Assembly: GCA_963678705.1 (NCBI GenBank)
Contig: OY783203.1
Span: 25,030,535 to 25,094,534 of the forward strand
Length of the DNA stretch: 64,000 nucleotides
Direction of reading: 5' to 3'
Origin: Panorpa germanica
Lineage: Eukaryota > Arthropoda > Insecta > Mecoptera > Panorpidae
The notes under the pieces were generated by a model. That model was given only the letters and a program-made list of their open reading frames with translations. It was not told where the DNA came from and made no database searches. Each line of letters begins with the position of its first letter. The stretch's first letter is position 1. Both the position numbers and the translations under genes were made by a program. Positions 3,245 through 60,557 of the stretch are shown piece after piece.

Positions 3245-4316
3245 CTCGAAGTGTTCACGCTGCTTCAGCGGCTAATGACAGCGCGCTCATTTTTTGATAA
3301 GCGTTAGTCTGATATGCTGTTTACAAACTTACAGAAGCATATCGTTTTACATCGCAGTTAAAAAAAAGTTATCGAAAAGTAATTCAAACGCAACAGTGTT
3401 ATTGCTTTGTATTTGGCTGGAAAATCGCAAGCAGCCATTGTTAATGAGCTCGGACATTTACATGTAAACAAAATGTTTGACTATCGGACCATTAATGTTA
3501 CAATGATACTGGTAGCATCAAAGGTGGACATCCAAATACAGCAACATCGCCAGAATAGTTCGAAAGGTGAAGGCCAGAATTCAACGTAATTCACTACAAA
3601 GCGCAGTTTAATTGGCGAAAAATCTCCATGTGTTTGCTCGTAACTTGGGGCGCATATTAAAATTAAACTCCGATTGAAGCCCTACAAAATGTAAAAATTG
3701 CAAGATTTAACACTTGCAAAAAAGGCAGTTCGCCTGACAAGAGCAAAGGTGTTGCATGTTGGTGGTGAGCTTGAAAATTTGGTCTTTTCTTATGAAGAAA
3801 TTTTTACTGTTCAGCAATATGTAAACAAACAAAACGATCATGTATGGTTACAGTGCAAATCAAAATACAAAAATTTAGATCTGCGAAAGCAAGCGTCTGG
3901 TATGGACCGCGGTAACGCCCATATGGTCATAGGGCGTAAGGTAAAACAACAAATCTACTGTGAAAAGTTTTTACTTTGTTACCTTGGGCACGTAAATAAT
4001 TCGGTATTCCCAGTTCATTTCTTGAAAACAATGGCCACCATATCGATCCACCGATTTTTCTATATGGTCCATTCTGTACCAAAATGGACAAAGGCAGAAT
4101 GGAACAAAATACCATCAGACCACTTTCGTGCAGCGTGTGAAGCTTTCCCGGACAGACTCGATACTATTCAGATGTTCAGCCACCGCACTAAAGGTGGTTA
4201 CGTCGAACAATAACATTTTTTTTTTAATTTGAAATGTTTTTACGATATACTAAACTTTCTAAATAAAAAATCAAAATTGACAAAATTACAGGAATTTTAA
4301 TTGGTAACACTTCGAG
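3245..4316 (+). pseudogene. Tc1/mariner-type transposon remnant with decayed transposase
   Basis: Two fragments of one transposase are visible. The first, around 3407-3480, reads LAGKSQAAIVNELG...KMFDYRTI, an N-terminal helix-turn-helix. The second, 3698-4213, reads KKAVRLTRAKVL, NLVFSYEEIF, QQYVNKQNDHVWL and a C-terminal FPDRLDT...KGGYVEQ ending in TAA. In active relatives the FS-D-E-K-x-F block supplies the first catalytic aspartate. Here it reads FSYEEIF, so the Asp is replaced by Tyr. Stops and frameshifts separate the parts. An 11-bp inverted repeat, CTCGAAGTGTT at 3245-3255 and its complement at 4306-4316, brackets the coding region and probably marks the inner TIRs. A TA follows the right copy. 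The element cannot be active. The subfamily is uncertain. Confidence 0.7.
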
Positions 4317-43536: not shown

Positions 43537-43793
43537 TTAGACACATATGTAGGCGGAAAAATTATGCATATATTAAGAGTATTTTAAAGTCTTTTTTATA
43601 CGAGTATTTTGTTTCTTAAGTTGGGCATTATTTCAGTTCTACACCAACAATTTATTATTGAGAGGTTGACATTCCAACAACATGTTTTAGTAATTAAGAC
43701 ATTAACAGAGCACAGGTGTTCTAGTTCATTATTATACTCTCAAACAATCCTTCATTTGATATTAACGAAGTTTATTTCTACATAATTTGTGGG

Positions 43794-44104
43794 TGTACGA
43801 AATAAAACCATGCGAGTAAAATAGATTGAATAATTTATTCAAATATTCAACGATAAAATTAATTTACACTTTTATTAAATAACTTTAACCAAAATCTTAT
43901 AATGTAAAATGGTTGCGAATCATGATACTTGACAGTGTAAAAGCCAGAACACGACTAACTTGCCTCGCTGTATGCCCGTGGCGTACACTGCAATACTCGT
44001 AATGTTGCCATGCGTATAACTTCTACCAGAGACAACAATACATTATAATGTTGGAATGTCAGCAGAGACATATCTTATGTTCTGTACTGATTTTGTACTG
44101 AACA
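43794..44104 (-). repeat. 3' LTR of the BEL/Pao element
   Basis: 311 bp, identical to the 5' LTR. The sequence immediately upstream on the minus strand (CCTGGGCCCCCAATTTA) is not an obvious polypurine tract. Confidence 0.93.
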
Positions 44105-44168
44105 TAAATTGGGGGCCCAGGAAAAATAGATGAGCTCACAACCAATATCAAATTATACAATATTACAT

Positions 44169-44282
44169 AAAATTATTATAAACAAAATTACACAAAATAA
44201 TGTAAACTTCTTAATTCTAATTCTTCTTAAAATTATTATAAACAAAATTACACAAAATAATATAAACTTCTTAATTCTATGG
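44169..44282. repeat. 60-bp tandem duplication in the BEL/Pao 3' region
   Basis: 'aaaattattataaacaaaat' then 'tacacaaaataat(g/a)taaact' and 'tcttaattcta' occurs twice in direct succession, with one clear substitution. Confidence 0.85.
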
Positions 44283-44401
44283 TAGTCTACATAATTTTGT
44301 GAAAATAATATAAAACAAATTAATAACTATCCTAAATATAACAGAAACCGTAATTATCAATATAGCATACAATATCATCAACATAACTGACACAACAATC
44401 A

Positions 44402-46054
44402 TCAAATAGTTACAATAATAGTAACTAGCCAAAAATGTTTCAGTTTAATGATGTTAGAAAATTCTTTAAACAAATCCAACAGTAAAGGTGCTTGTTCTAC
44501 TTCAATGTTGTAAGCATTGCTTTTAGTATCTTCACCTTCTGATGGAAGTATTGTATTTGAATCAGAAATTTTATCTGTTGCTTGTTTTATTTGCGCCAGC
44601 AAGACTGCGCTAATAAGCTCAAGTTGGGGTATTGTAAGTACCTTACTTGATGGAGCCACACTAGACTTGCAGCAAATTAAATTTGTTTTTATCTTGCTAT
44701 TTGAGTTAGGACACTTAAAGGTAAATGTGTCCAAAATAATATTGTGTTTTAAACCTAATGTCATAATAATGGTTGATTTGTTTAATAATGTTTTATAGAC
44801 CTCCAATAGTGAAGGATTGCGTCTAAATCTTTTTTCTAACACATTAAATCTTTGCAGGGCGACTGAGAAAGAATCCCCCAATTCTATTTTATTTACTGGG
44901 CTGAGTAATGGCAAATCAACAGTTGAAGTATTATTTTTAAGTGCTACTGAATTTTGAAAATTATGTTCAGCCTTTAAGTATTCCTCAGAAAACTCATCTG
45001 ATTCCTCTGGGACTTTCTCAGTCGTCCAAGATTGTTCCATAACATTCTCAAGGTTTGTATGGTCATAAATAGCAAGATTACATACAATATTATTATGTGA
45101 ATACTTATTTTGATTATGCAATTTTCTTGGAACCACATTTCCAAATGTGTTTTGTTGATCAATAAATTTTTCTTTATAATTATTGTCATGTGACATATTT
45201 TTATAATTTGAACTATACTCAAGTGCAATTGCACGTCTTTCTAAAAATGAAATAAATTCTGCCATAGTAGGCAGTTTTTCTAAATTTCTTTCCATGTGGA
45301 AAGTGCGGTTAGTAAAGATATCTAATTTTCTACTTAAGGTTGAGATTAAAATCATATCCCATTTGTCTACAGGCTGATCAAGATTTTTTAACGCTTGTAA
45401 TTGCTGTTTGACTTGACATAAAAAAGCCCTTATAGCGACTGCAGTACCTTTCTGCATGTTTGGAATATCAAGTAGTATACTAATATGATTAAAGATTAAT
45501 CTCGCCTTATTTTCATACCGCGCTAACAATAAATCAAGAGCCTCTTTATATGAGCTGTTCACAAGCGGCAGATTTATGATTATTGAAAGAGCCTCATCAA
45601 GGAGATACTTTCTCAAATAAAAAAGTCTTTGTACATCGGACAATGAGGTATTATTATGAACAACTGCTTGGAAGAGCTCATAAAAGGGCTTAAACCTGGT
45701 TATATCCTTGCCATCGAAGTTTGGAATTTCCACCGCTGGAAGCTTCGATGGAACTAAGTTAGGCCTATTAACTTCTTTTAACTTATTGATGCTAGCATTT
45801 AATTTTGCTAGAATATTAAAATACTTTTCTTCAACTTCTTCTATGTCTTCATCATCCTGATCATCAATCTCTAAAATGCTGTACTGCGTGAGCTCGTACG
45901 ATTGAAATGTAGTCATCAACTTTTCTTTTTTCACCTCCAGCAACTCCACTGTAGCGGAGTCGAGAGCCCTTGGGTCGCTGACGTAATTGTCCATCCTTGA
46001 TATTGAACTTTTTGCAGTCGTCCGCGCCGTTCTAAGCCTTTTCAATCCCTCCAT
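44402..46054 (-). CDS. BEL/Pao gag with fused pol remnants, 550 aa
   Basis: Starts at ATG 46054 and is uninterrupted to the stop at 44402. Residues about 100-285 match the gag-like region typical of BEL/Pao (DUF1759): PAVEIPNFDGK, FKPFYELFQAVVHN, KYLLDEAL, and an A-x-L-L-x-R-Y motif. Residues about 338-425 resemble the segment preceding and entering the reverse transcriptase (EQSWTTEKVP, LGDSFSVALQRFNVLEKR). Residues about 460-490 (CKSSVAPSSK, LTIPQLELISA) resemble the post-RT region of Pao-type pol. The CCHC knuckle, aspartic protease, the YxDD catalytic core and the integrase are missing. The junctions keep the frame, so a particle-forming protein without enzymes is plausible. It lies on the minus strand between the leader repeats and the tandem repeat. 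Confidence 0.85.
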   Translation of the reverse strand: MEGLKRLRTARTTAKSSISRMDNYVSDPRALDSATVELLEVKKEKLMTTFQSYELTQYSILEIDDQDDEDIEEVEEKYFNILAKLNASINKLKEVNRPNLVPSKLPAVEIPNFDGKDITRFKPFYELFQAVVHNNTSLSDVQRLFYLRKYLLDEALSIIINLPLVNSSYKEALDLLLARYENKARLIFNHISILLDIPNMQKGTAVAIRAFLCQVKQQLQALKNLDQPVDKWDMILISTLSRKLDIFTNRTFHMERNLEKLPTMAEFISFLERRAIALEYSSNYKNMSHDNNYKEKFIDQQNTFGNVVPRKLHNQNKYSHNNIVCNLAIYDHTNLENVMEQSWTTEKVPEESDEFSEEYLKAEHNFQNSVALKNNTSTVDLPLLSPVNKIELGDSFSVALQRFNVLEKRFRRNPSLLEVYKTLLNKSTIIMTLGLKHNIILDTFTFKCPNSNSKIKTNLICCKSSVAPSSKVLTIPQLELISAVLLAQIKQATDKISDSNTILPSEGEDTKSNAYNIEVEQAPLLLDLFKEFSNIIKLKHFWLVTIIVTI

Positions 46055-46249
46055 ATTGCTTAGGTGATAAAATCGTACTTTTACGATATACGAAACGTGG
46101 ATGACAAAACGAATCCAGCTTAATCCAGCAACTTAAGAAGTTTTTAATAAATTGGTACTTGTAGATAGTAATAATAGCTTTGTACCTTCATGAGTAAAAA
46201 AGTATTTTACTCTCTTCCAGCATCCATGTATCCTTTTCCGTAATGATAA

Positions 46250-46705
46250 CTTTCTTGAATAATTTTTCTTGAAATATAAATGTGTAGTAACCAAATCGTC
46301 TGTGAATCCGCCTAAATCAAGCGTTGCATTACCCAATCAATGGCAATTGATGACTTGCCGGGCCGCCATAGGGTAAATGTAAAAAATAGCTTGTACACGT
46401 GTCGGGTATTATACAGATGTAACCTCAAAACACAACGAGATCACACGCGGTTACCAATGGCTTGTAAGACCAGTTTTGTTTGTAGGAATTAAAACCTTCT
46501 TGAAATGTAATTGTAATATCCAAATCCTCTGTGAATCCGTTAAAATAGAACGTAGCATTACCCAATCAATGGCAATTGTGACTTCTAGAGTCGCCAAGGG
46601 GTAAATGTAAAAAAAACGCCTCAAAACACAACGAAAACACACGCGGTTAATAAACTCGAAGGACCAACTTTGCTTGTAAGGCTCGAAGGACCAGCTTCGC
46701 ATGTA
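46250..46705 (-). repeat. Tandemly repeated leader of the BEL/Pao element
   Basis: Two diverged units share 'cattacccaatcaatggcaa' then 'ttg', '(a/g)gggtaaatgtaaaaaa', 'aacacaacga(g/a)', 'acacgcggtta' and 'cttgtaag', at about 46325-46480 and 46555-46705. The upper unit ends in the primer-binding-like words. The repeat lies between the 5' LTR and the ORF, where packaging signals would be expected. Confidence 0.6.
46626..46700 (-). promoter_or_regulatory. Probable primer-binding site and duplicated copy
   Basis: Just inside the 5' LTR the minus strand reads TGCGAAGC then TGGTCCTTCGAGC. TGG is the usual start of a site complementary to a tRNA 3' CCA end. About 30 bp further on, TTGGTCCTTCGAG occurs again. 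The first copy, 8 nt from the LTR, is the likely primer-binding site. The tRNA is not identified. Confidence 0.5.
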
Positions 46706-47012
46706 CGAAATAAAACCATGCGAGTAAAATAGATTGAATAATTTATTCAAATATTCAACGATAAAATTAATTTACACTTTTATTAAATAACTTTAACCAA
46801 AATCTTATAATGTAAAATGGTTGCGAATCATGATACTTGACAGTGTAAAAGCCAGAACACGACTAACTTGCCTCGCTGTATGCCCGTGGCGTACACTGCA
46901 ATACTCGTAATGTTGCCATGCGTATAACTTCTACCAGAGACAACAATACATTATAATGTTGGAATGTCAGCAGAGACATATCTTATGTTCTGTACTGATT
47001 TTGTACTGAACA
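46702..47012 (-). repeat. 5' LTR of the BEL/Pao element
   Basis: 311 bp, starting (minus strand) at 47012 with TGTTCAGTACAAAATCAGTA and ending ...TTTCGTACA at 46702. No difference from the 3' LTR was found on reading. It should carry the promoter of the element. Confidence 0.93.
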
Positions 47013-47312
47013 GTGGGTACTAACGTTAGAGTCGTCATTGACGATCAGAAAATACAATTATATAATTTAAGACGCAGTGAATTATTCTAAATTATTTTTG
47101 GAAAATGTTTATGAAATTTAAACTTCACTGTGCATTTTTTCTTTTTTAATTCGAAGAAGTTCAACCACATCAGACTTCAATATGTTATTCATCACGTTTA
47201 AATTATGCGAATTTTTAAAGATGCATAATATCAAAACGTTCTGATAGCCGTTAATTTTCTTTCTATTATGTTATATAAATATTCTTTTTTAGCTATCTTA
47301 TTTTATACATAA

Positions 47313-58934: not shown

Positions 58935-59838
58935 GATATGCAGAATAATGTGTACTAAGAGCGATCACAAATCACAATAATGCATAAACTAAGTTTATGT
59001 CTCATATAAGTCTCAAAAGATCTCTCTATTTCACAAAAGTGTCGTTGTGACCACACATATAATACTAAAACCATAGCTCTCGCTGCATACGTCTTCCCTC
59101 CTCTCCTACGTTTGATACGATAAATCGAATGCGTCTGGACCTGTGGACGTTTACCTCTACTGTACCTTTGACGTCAACATTCCTGAATTCTTAATAATGA
59201 TTCAATATAAATGATACAACACAAACTGGATAAAGCGTGTACGTAAATCGATCTGTCAATCAATCACAACGCGATTTTTGTTTCATATACGGAAATAGAT
59301 GTTCAAATTTTACTGGTGATTCATTTGGAGCACATCCTCGTACCATTACATACAGACGTACTTACGAGGACGGGTACATGAAAGATCCGACAAACGATAA
59401 AGCGACAGAGCGTTTGACGGGTACTCTTTTCCCTGTTTTTGCAACAGTCAGTTGCTGATCTTTTAAAATAAAATAAACTTGTTTTAAACCAGTTGGAATA
59501 AGTAATTGTCACAAACATTTTAAACAATACATTTTGTCATATTTTTATAAAACAATTCTTTGTGAATTATTTTGTTAAATGCAAATAACACAACGTAACA
59601 TTTTAACCTACATTTGTACCAGTTTATAATATACAATTTCTTACTTAAAAATTCTTTATGTCATTCTACATATATATTTGTATAGAGCGGTGGTCGACAA
59701 CCTTAATAGTCAAAAGAGTCAAATTTTAGCAGTCTACGATACATTACATTTCTTTGGCGAGCCAAATTTTTTTTCTTTTTTTTTTTATATTAATTTATAG
59801 TGCATATATAGTGCATTGGGTTATTAGCACTTAAACAA
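58935..59838. other. Non-coding stretch
   Basis: The 73-codon frame at 59237-59458 is somewhat GC-richer than its surroundings but has no recognised motif, and its complement is equally open. Not called as a gene. Confidence 0.35.
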
Positions 59839-60557
59839 ATATACACTGTCTGTTCAAAAAATTTTTCTATTTTGTCCCCTTCAAAGTAGTCCCCCTCAGA
59901 TATAATACACTTGTGCCAGCGTTTTTTCCAATCCTCGAAGCAGTTCTGATATGCACTTTTTGGTATGCTCTTGATCTCTCTCAGCGATTCGGTTTGTATC
60001 TTCTCAATCGTCTCAAAACGCCGTCCTTTCATGGGTCTCTTCAATCTTGGGAACAGGAAAAAGTCGCAGGGGGCCAAATCTGGTGAATACGGTGGCTGAG
60101 GCATGATTACGGTGTTGTTTTTGGACAAAAAATTACGAACAAGCAATGACGAGTGAGCAGGTGCATTAACAAACTTCGCTGCCACACGCTTCATGCCCAA
60201 AATTTCCGAAAAAATTGCATGGTATGAGCCAATCGATATACCGACATCCTCAGCAACTTCTCTAATAGTGATTCGACGATTCTTCATAACAATTTTCTTC
60301 ACTTCCTCAACATTTTCCTCAACAGTTGATGTGCTGGGGCGTTCAGGGCGAGCGTCGTCATCCACATCTTCTCGACCTTCTGTGAAAAGCTTGTACCACT
60401 TGTAAACATTTTTTTGGCTTAAAGTAGACTCACCATATGGCACTTTCAACATTTCAAGTGTTTTGGAGCACTTGATTCCATTTTTCACACAAAATTTAAT
60501 GCAAACTCTTTGATCTATGTTTTTTCGACAGCAGAAATCGCCGAACACGCAAAACAC
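59790..60557 (-). pseudogene. mariner transposase with in-frame central deletion
   Basis: 255 codons from 60557. Residues 14-125 form the N-terminal DNA-binding part (KNIDQRVCIKFC, STLSQKNVYKWYKLFTEG, ITIREVAEDVGISIGS). At residues 130/131 (about 60167) AAKFV joins NAPAHSS directly, dropping roughly 100 residues with the first catalytic Asp and, by its HDNAPAH context, the second. The C-terminal block keeps PYSPDLAPCDFFLFP, whose Asp at 165 would be the third catalytic residue, and KCIISEGDYFEGD. The usual stop after this is lost, so the frame reads on through the TIR into flanking DNA. The true start is uncertain: the relatives' Met lies just before IDQR, and the extra N-terminal residues here are probably not native. 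It cannot catalyse transposition. Confidence 0.88.

What the first reader, a model, noticed from the sequence alone, without database searches (positions are those of the whole stretch)
43794..47012. Young, compact BEL/Pao derivative that kept gag and dropped its enzymes in frame
The two 311-bp LTRs read as identical and the 5-bp duplication is exact, so this deleted form inserted recently. Its single 550-codon ORF fuses the gag-like region to scraps of pol, with protease, RT core and integrase gone and no stop introduced. Repeated in-frame loss suggests the shortened protein is maintained. The element may be a self-packaging, trans-mobilised family instead of a one-off wreck.
Basis: partly seen in the sequence, partly recalled or inferred. 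Interest (0 to 1): 0.8.

Follow-up and report, generated by a model that had tools for sequence, protein, structure and literature searches.

The report
Stripped-down jumping element that still spreads
A shortened retroelement that lost its enzymes, but kept an open capsid-like gene, sits at hundreds of places in this genome and has probably spread by sharing particles and sequence with its full-length relatives.

Summary
In detail: minus strand, two identical 311-bp LTRs, exact GTGGG duplication, one 550-codon ORF. It is no one-off wreck. Its RT-deletion junction occurs at 449 places, the uncut RT core at 145; reversed-pattern controls gave 0. The 66 junction copies held show a nested deletion series with two separate losses of the nucleocapsid-protease region. 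Ten of ten shared ORF deletions keep frame (one shared 1-bp insertion in the last two codons left out); 10 of 13 private small indels break it. Full-length relatives share the LTR, and L009 is a mosaic of short-type 5' end and full-length body, which points to co-packaging and template switching.

"Trans-mobilised family" is well supported. "Maintained protein" is partly supported: open frame strongly, gag residues weakly (N:S 51:30, p 0.03-0.14), pol tail not at all. "Self-packaging" is not supported: the zinc-knuckle region is gone. The closest known kinds are plant TR-GAG and semi-autonomous elements; I file it as a BEL/Pao variant of that kind.

The parts
43789..43793 (.). target-site duplication GTGGG, left copy
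47013..47017 (.). target-site duplication GTGGG, right copy
46702..47012 (-). 5' LTR, 311 bp (element reads on the minus strand)
   Evidence: identical to the other LTR
43794..44104 (-). 3' LTR, 311 bp
46055..46701 (-). 5' leader with diverged tandem copies of a unit of about 229 bp (46283-46349 and 46512-46578, and others)
   Evidence: 98-100% identical to L009
44402..46054 (-). 550-codon ORF
45170..46054 (-). gag-like part, codons 1-295, holding DUF1759 (residues 113-252, about 45299-45718)
45148..45170 (-). junction J1: nucleocapsid + protease region deleted in frame, with a short filler
44778..45148 (-). pol scrap between protease and RT core
44778..44785 (-). junction J2: RT core deleted (669 bp net); junction word at 449 places in the genome
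44698..44703 (-). junction J3: 327 bp net deleted, first part of Peptidase_A17
44570..44710 (-). Peptidase_A17 scrap (residues 449-495)
44567..44591 (-). junction J4 (nested: J4a, then further loss J4c), 282 bp net
44401..44442 (-). junction J5: integrase region deleted, runs past the ORF stop

Best explanation
This is a young copy of a large non-autonomous BEL/Pao family that has been inserting until recently. It keeps an open gag-like frame and borrows protease, RT and integrase from full-length relatives with the same LTR. Shown from sequence: the deletion series, the shared junctions, the separate recent insertions, the kept frame, and the mosaics with full-length copies. Inferred: transcripts of short and full-length copies are packaged in the same particles. 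The full-length RT copies both and switches templates, which makes new deletion forms and swaps LTRs, leaders and gag patches. The full-length integrase inserts the product. The shortened capsid-like protein probably co-assembles with full-length Gag. An open frame appears to be needed in cis for a copy to found descendants.
For: Counts: J2 at 449 places, uncut RT core at 145, reversed controls 0 in both. Insertion: 39 of 45 short copies with both LTRs have an exact 5-bp duplication at the expected place (three of the 39 are segmental duplicates of others), and 35 of 45 LTR pairs differ by about 1% or less, while their LTRs are 78-98% identical to the window's. Frame: 10 of 10 shared ORF deletions are in frame, against 10 of 13 private small indels that break it (Fisher p 0.0004; small indels only, 0 of 4 against 10 of 13, p 0.015). 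Stops: 0 among 141 shared variants, 10 among 283 singletons (p 0.035). Recombination: in 120-base blocks, L009 294-1373 matches its best short copy at 97-100% in 8 of 9 blocks, and its best other full-length copy (of L064, L066, L067) at 78-93% in all 9. The first block is undecided (89 vs 88). Beyond that it matches full-length copies at 97-100%. Short copy L053 has one block nearest to full-length (98, against 92 for the best window-like and 94 for the best older form). All four J1/J4a combinations exist.
Against: No RNA or protein data. With changes polarised by full-length and older forms, gag N:S is 51:30 (p 0.03-0.14 by the null used) and does not differ from singletons (Fisher p 0.27). 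A stricter derived-allele count gives 33:19, p 0.13. The clearer gag signal is carried partly by alleles also seen in full-length or older copies. The nucleocapsid region is gone, so the protein may not package RNA by itself. Of the 42 window-like copies, 12 have an ORF that closes before codon 510. One shared 1-bp insertion (25 copies) lies in the last two codons and lengthens the C terminus; it was not counted among the ten. Only three other full-length copies, and only their 5' 3 kb, were compared with L009. In the leader tree the four full-length copies do not group together.
Confidence: 0.75

Rival explanations
1. Pure passenger: the short RNA is mobilised wholly in trans, and the ORF is open only because few young source copies gave rise to all the others.
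For: Gag constraint is weak after polarisation, the tail shows none, and plant BARE2 spreads without making Gag (PMC3735527).
Against: 122-141 variants are shared between copies; about 4-7 shared stops would be expected and none is seen. All 10 shared deletions counted keep frame, while most private indels do not.
Confidence: 0.2
2. A form of the best explanation: the open frame is needed for its own sake. Translation through most of the RNA protects or routes it (for example escape from decay of messages with early stops), and the residues matter little.
For: The tail keeps frame without residue constraint: shared N:S 59:19 over codons 297-550, and 22:4 and 33:8 for derived changes in its first scrap, with no shared stops. 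Gag constraint is weak.
Against: For shared variants, gag N:S is lower than tail N:S in each of the seven comparisons made (Fisher p 0.005-0.19, five of them 0.06-0.08), so some residues probably matter. Singletons show no such difference.
Confidence: 0.3
3. The shortened Gag acts as a brake on full-length copies, like Ty1 p22.
For: A truncated Gag is the kind of protein that blocks Ty1 assembly (PMC4599808 abstract).
Against: A brake on the helper would also hurt the short copies, and they outnumber uncut ones 449 to 145. [quoted passage not shown] here the N-terminal part is kept. Not tested.
Confidence: 0.08
4. The deletions are spliced-out introns of the genomic RNA fixed by reverse transcription.
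For: Several separate internal pieces are missing with frame kept.
Against: By eye the ends are not GT...AG. J2, J3 and J4a have short matches at the ends and J1 has filler, as in template switching. Nested and alternative ends (J1/J1', J4a/b/c) do not suit fixed splice sites.
Confidence: 0.03

Closest known systems
TR-GAG elements (terminal-repeat retrotransposons with GAG domain; Chaparro et al. 2015 as cited in PMC8704663 and PMC5818461)
   Same: Two LTRs, one ORF for GAG (562 aa in AT5TE33540), no pol; a full-length relative of high similarity is the presumed helper; one was seen to transpose in a plant ddm1 mutant (passages).
   Different: The TR-GAGs in the passages I saw are plant elements. 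Here gag lacks the nucleocapsid and is fused in frame to pol scraps.
Wheat RLG_Sabrina_SA / RLG_WHAM semi-autonomous elements (PMC9744471)
   Same: Gag kept and RT/INT lost, high copy number, a proposed autonomous partner. LTR transfer by gene conversion or template switching was proposed in that paper for Angela elements (section 12 and passages).
   Different: The wheat elements keep the protease and are gypsy; the window element lost it. Older forms here (L029, L034, L049) do keep gag + protease, like Sabrina_SA.
rooA short copies in Drosophila erecta (PMC3087523)
   Same: An LTR element (BEL/Pao by recall), young copies about 25% of canonical length, thought to spread by intact helpers (passages).
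   Different: Some rooA copies carry stop codons. No frame maintenance, deletion series or helper mosaics appear in the three passages I saw.
BARE2 (PMC3735527)
   Same: Non-autonomous partner packaged in particles of its relative (abstract and passages).
   Different: BARE2 cannot make Gag and lacks its start codon; here the gag start and frame are kept.

Membership tests
BEL/Pao LTR retrotransposons | TG...CA LTRs and short (4-6 bp, recalled) target duplication | tested here: met
   311-bp LTRs, 5-bp duplication
BEL/Pao LTR retrotransposons | BEL/Pao-type gag (DUF1759, association recalled) and Pao peptidase A17 | tested here: met
   E 1.1e-26 and 4.2e-08 (A17 only in part)
BEL/Pao LTR retrotransposons | protease, RT, RNase H, integrase in that order | tested here: not met
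   absent from this copy; protease, RT and integrase pieces present in same-LTR relative L009. Filed as a deletion derivative, not as an autonomous member
TR-GAG | two LTRs, one ORF with GAG, no pol enzymes | tested here: met
   pol scraps remain in the tail
TR-GAG | complete GAG including nucleocapsid (whether this defines the class was not checked) | tested here: not met
   zinc-knuckle stretch of L009 (read by eye) falls in the J1 deletion
TR-GAG | plant LTR element | tested here: not met
   BEL/Pao domains; host unnamed
TRIM / LARD | no coding capacity | tested here: not met
   550-codon ORF; 27 of 42 window-like copies open to 540 codons or more
BARE2-like full parasite | cannot make Gag | tested here: not met
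   gag ATG present in the window copy and the 41 other window-like copies; ORF open to 510 codons or more in 30 of these 42. That protein is made was not tested
trans-mobilised family (any) | RNA packaged and copied by a helper | not testable with these tools
   indirect: mosaics L009 and L053, shared LTR and leader

The most novel reading that the evidence does not exclude
A retroelement lineage in which the open frame itself is the selected trait. Copies must be translated through a long frame to be stabilised or packaged in cis, so pol is worn away only by in-frame steps while its residues drift freely. The capsid-only protein serves as an entry ticket to the helper's particles.
Probability: 0.3. 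Interest if true: 0.75.

Novelty: new variant of a known kind. Interest (0 to 1): 0.6.

Why it matters
Gag-keeping, enzyme-less LTR elements are described from plants in the papers I saw. Here one genome holds older forms too: gag + protease forms, two separate nucleocapsid-protease losses and the most reduced form, next to full-length relatives with which they recombine. That makes it possible to test what a parasite of a retroelement must keep: cis signals, an open frame, or a working capsid protein. It also shows helper and parasite swapping LTRs and leaders, which could let the parasite follow its helper as the helper changes.

Tried and rejected
Single-sequence fold of the gag part: mean pLDDT 45.7, all helical, not used for a fold search. 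PDB sequence search of the ORF: 0 hits up to E 1. Splicing as origin of the gaps: rejected by eye on the junction ends. The idea that the J1 filler was copied from the RT start of a full-length RNA: score 14 against L009 near 3283, reached by 0 of 60 and 16 of 3000 random sequences, and the filler's bounds were chosen after seeing it; a lead only. The first selection count gave a strong gag signal; it shrank when alleles shared with full-length or older forms were set aside or polarised, so I claim only weak residue constraint. IQ-TREE codon models were run, but no omega was read from the output, so none is cited. L065 gave no match to the L009 piece and was dropped from the trees. By its RT core and integrase lie about 5.0 kb apart, against 1.9 kb in L009, so the fetched stretch probably fell inside an insertion. 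L012 held one LTR and no internal match and was dropped. Segmental duplicates L041, L042, L059-L061, L063 and the odd forms L029, L034, L036, L038, L049, L057 were dropped from the 42-copy counts. The primer tRNA and the host species were not worked out.

Full report
Observation. The element at 43794-47012 reads on the minus strand. Its LTRs are identical over 311 bp and its 5-bp flanks are both GTGGG. The ORF is 550 codons, 44402-46054; the next longest listed there is 99. Pfam gives DUF1759 and positions 101-147 of 162 of Peptidase_A17. I call the reverse complement 'el', with el position = 47013 minus window position.

Family. An LTR search of the window's own genome (464 Mb, unnamed) scored 40 of 1266 candidates, with the other copies 93-98% identical. 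One fetched copy, L009, has the same LTR at 95% and one open gag-pol frame of about 1.7 thousand residues. Against it, the window element lacks five stretches. In L009 these hold DUF1758 protease, RVT_1 (25.8 bits, below its cut-off of 29.6), the first 100 positions of A17, and Integrase_H2C2, rve (below cut-off) and DUF5641. One stretch gave only a weak, unrelated match below its cut-off. The zinc knuckles, read by eye, lie in the protease stretch.

Copy number. The 41-base RT-deletion junction (J2), with up to 3 mismatches, occurs at 449 places (218 + 231), and the reversed pattern at 0. A 41-base word inside the deleted RT core occurs at 145 places (65 + 80), reversed 0. An integrase piece of L009 had 223 candidates, and the 40 scored were 97-100% identical. 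By these two words short forms outnumber uncut ones about three to one. These are places, not separate insertions; some are segmental duplicates, and a word misses copies that have diverged further.

Sample. I held 66 J2 copies: the window's, 13 regions chosen from paired or strong LTR hits, 40 from the exact-match list (gag to J2 only) from its two-mismatch list. None was chosen by its ORF.

Insertion history. Of 54 fetched regions L010-L063, 45 hold two long LTR matches. In 39 of these an exact 5-bp duplication sits at the expected place. L026 gave none, and L043, L048, L050, L058 and L059 gave one out of place. LTR pairs differ at 0-4% of sites; in 35 of 45 the printed value is 0.010 or less. 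LTRs of these copies are 78-98% identical to the window's. So the short form has kept inserting while its lineages diverged.

Deletion series. L049 lacks the RT core (J2), the J3 stretch and the integrase, but keeps zinc knuckles, protease and the J4 region. L029 and L034 add the deletion J4a. L038 and L057 have their own removal of zinc knuckles and protease (J1', 846 bp net), keep the J4 region, and keep the frame open to 598 and 587 codons. L036 and the window type share J1, with the same filler, but have different J4 deletions. Of the 66 copies, 46 carry both the J1 and J4a words. L027 and L048 carry J4a plus a 27-bp in-frame loss at J1; L068-L073 and L075-L079 show the same span at J1, and L074 has J1 itself, but J4 lies outside these 12 pieces. 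All four combinations of J1 and J4a exist (window type; L036; L029/L034; L049), which implies recombination between deletion forms unless the junctions recurred exactly.

Frame. Net lengths are J1 765, J1' 846, J2 669, J3 327, J4a 141, J4b 150 (L036 only), J4c 282; small shared deletions are 27, 3, 27 and 24. All are multiples of 3. Leaving out J4b, which is in one copy, 10 of 10 shared events keep frame (1.7e-5 if each had chance 1/3). The J lengths were measured on 2 to 7 copies each that carry them, not on all; one L057 value (4 bp in the J4 span) and a 9-bp difference in L034 are private. Of 13 private small indels inside the ORF, 10 break frame (Fisher p 0.0004; small indels only, 10/13 against 0/4, p 0.015). 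Not counted: a shared 1-bp insertion (25 copies) in the last two codons, which lengthens the C terminus, and a shared 1-bp deletion (3 copies) past the window's stop.

Stops. In 42 window-like copies, 0 of 141 variants seen in two or more copies make a stop, against 10 of 283 singletons (Fisher p 0.035). In the polarised set (gag and first tail scrap), 0 stops stand beside 122 shared variants and 8 beside 157 singletons. ORFs are open to 510 codons or more in 30 of the 42.

Residues. Window against L009: dN/dS 0.21 in gag and 0.46 in the scraps; the full-length lineage contributes to both. Within 42 copies, gag N:S for shared variants is 33:30 against 2.5-3.0 to 1 expected, and the tail is 59:19. 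With alleles also found in full-length copies removed, gag is 22:16, p 0.051. With 54 copies and alleles of full-length and older forms removed, gag is 33:19, p 0.13, and the first tail scrap 22:4. With changes polarised by full-length plus older forms, gag is 51:30 (p 0.03-0.14 by the null used), first tail scrap 33:8, gag against tail p 0.063, gag against its singletons p 0.27 (43 variable gag sites could not be polarised). So gag constraint is at most moderate, and the tail shows none.

Recombination. In the gag and tail trees the four usable full-length copies form one group (support 90-100). In the LTR tree they fall among window-like copies, away from the older forms (support 92-100). 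In the leader tree they do not group together; L009's leader lies among short copies (support 92-100). In 120-base blocks, L009 294-1373 is nearer to short copies than to other full-length ones in all 9 blocks: eight clearly (97-100 against 78-93) and the first barely (89 against 88). Downstream it matches other full-length copies at 97-100; in one downstream block (1614-1733) a short copy scores higher, 99 against 97. L053 carries one block nearest to full-length (98, against 92 for the best window-like and 94 for the best older form). L009 has its own duplication and identical LTRs over the 297 bases compared, as expected for a reverse-transcription product. This is the best sequence evidence that both RNAs meet in one particle. 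Gene conversion in the genome is not excluded for the L053 patch.

Mechanism. Shown: family, deletion series, frame, mosaics. Inferred: co-packaging, copying and integration by full-length enzymes, co-assembly of the short protein, and a need for an open frame in cis. Self-packaging is unlikely without the nucleocapsid.

Literature (9 searches ran). TR-GAG (passages), wheat Sabrina/WHAM (section 12 and passages), barley (passages: WHAM, Sabrina_A and Giselle with potentially intact gag), roo/rooA (passages), BARE2 (abstract and passages), Culex (passages: non-autonomous LTR elements without coding potential), Ty1 p22 (abstract). The other papers were seen only as search listings. I found no gag-keeping BEL/Pao family in these searches. 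Most subscription papers are not in the library, so this is no proof of absence.

Noticed in passing
window 46283-46700: The leader holds diverged tandem copies of a unit of about 229 bp; the sequence next to the LTR (TGGTCCTTCGAG-like on the element strand) occurs more than once, so there may be more than one primer-site-like copy. Copies with a shorter 5' part exist (e.g. L040, L058).
   Followed up: partly
window 59790-60557, minus strand: Open frame of 255 aa with weak matches to HTH_48 (Mos1 transposase) and DDE_3, below Pfam's cut-offs: probably a mariner-type transposase remnant.
   Followed up: partly
window 3698-4213, plus strand: 171-aa open frame without a Pfam match at E 0.01.
   Followed up: no
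L058-L061 (G000 C183:125278-146430): Four J2 copies lie in a row 5.3-6.5 kb apart with nearly identical ORFs (99.9%): a tandem or segmental array that includes the element.
   Followed up: no
L022 and L063 (G000 C214): Two copies about 12 kb apart share the same target duplication TATAC and 99.6% of the ORF: a segmental duplication rather than two insertions.
   Followed up: partly
J2 places, genome-wide listing: Among the listed places many lie on C5 and C6, while the uncut RT-core places look more even across contigs; both listings are cut, so this is only an impression.
   Followed up: no
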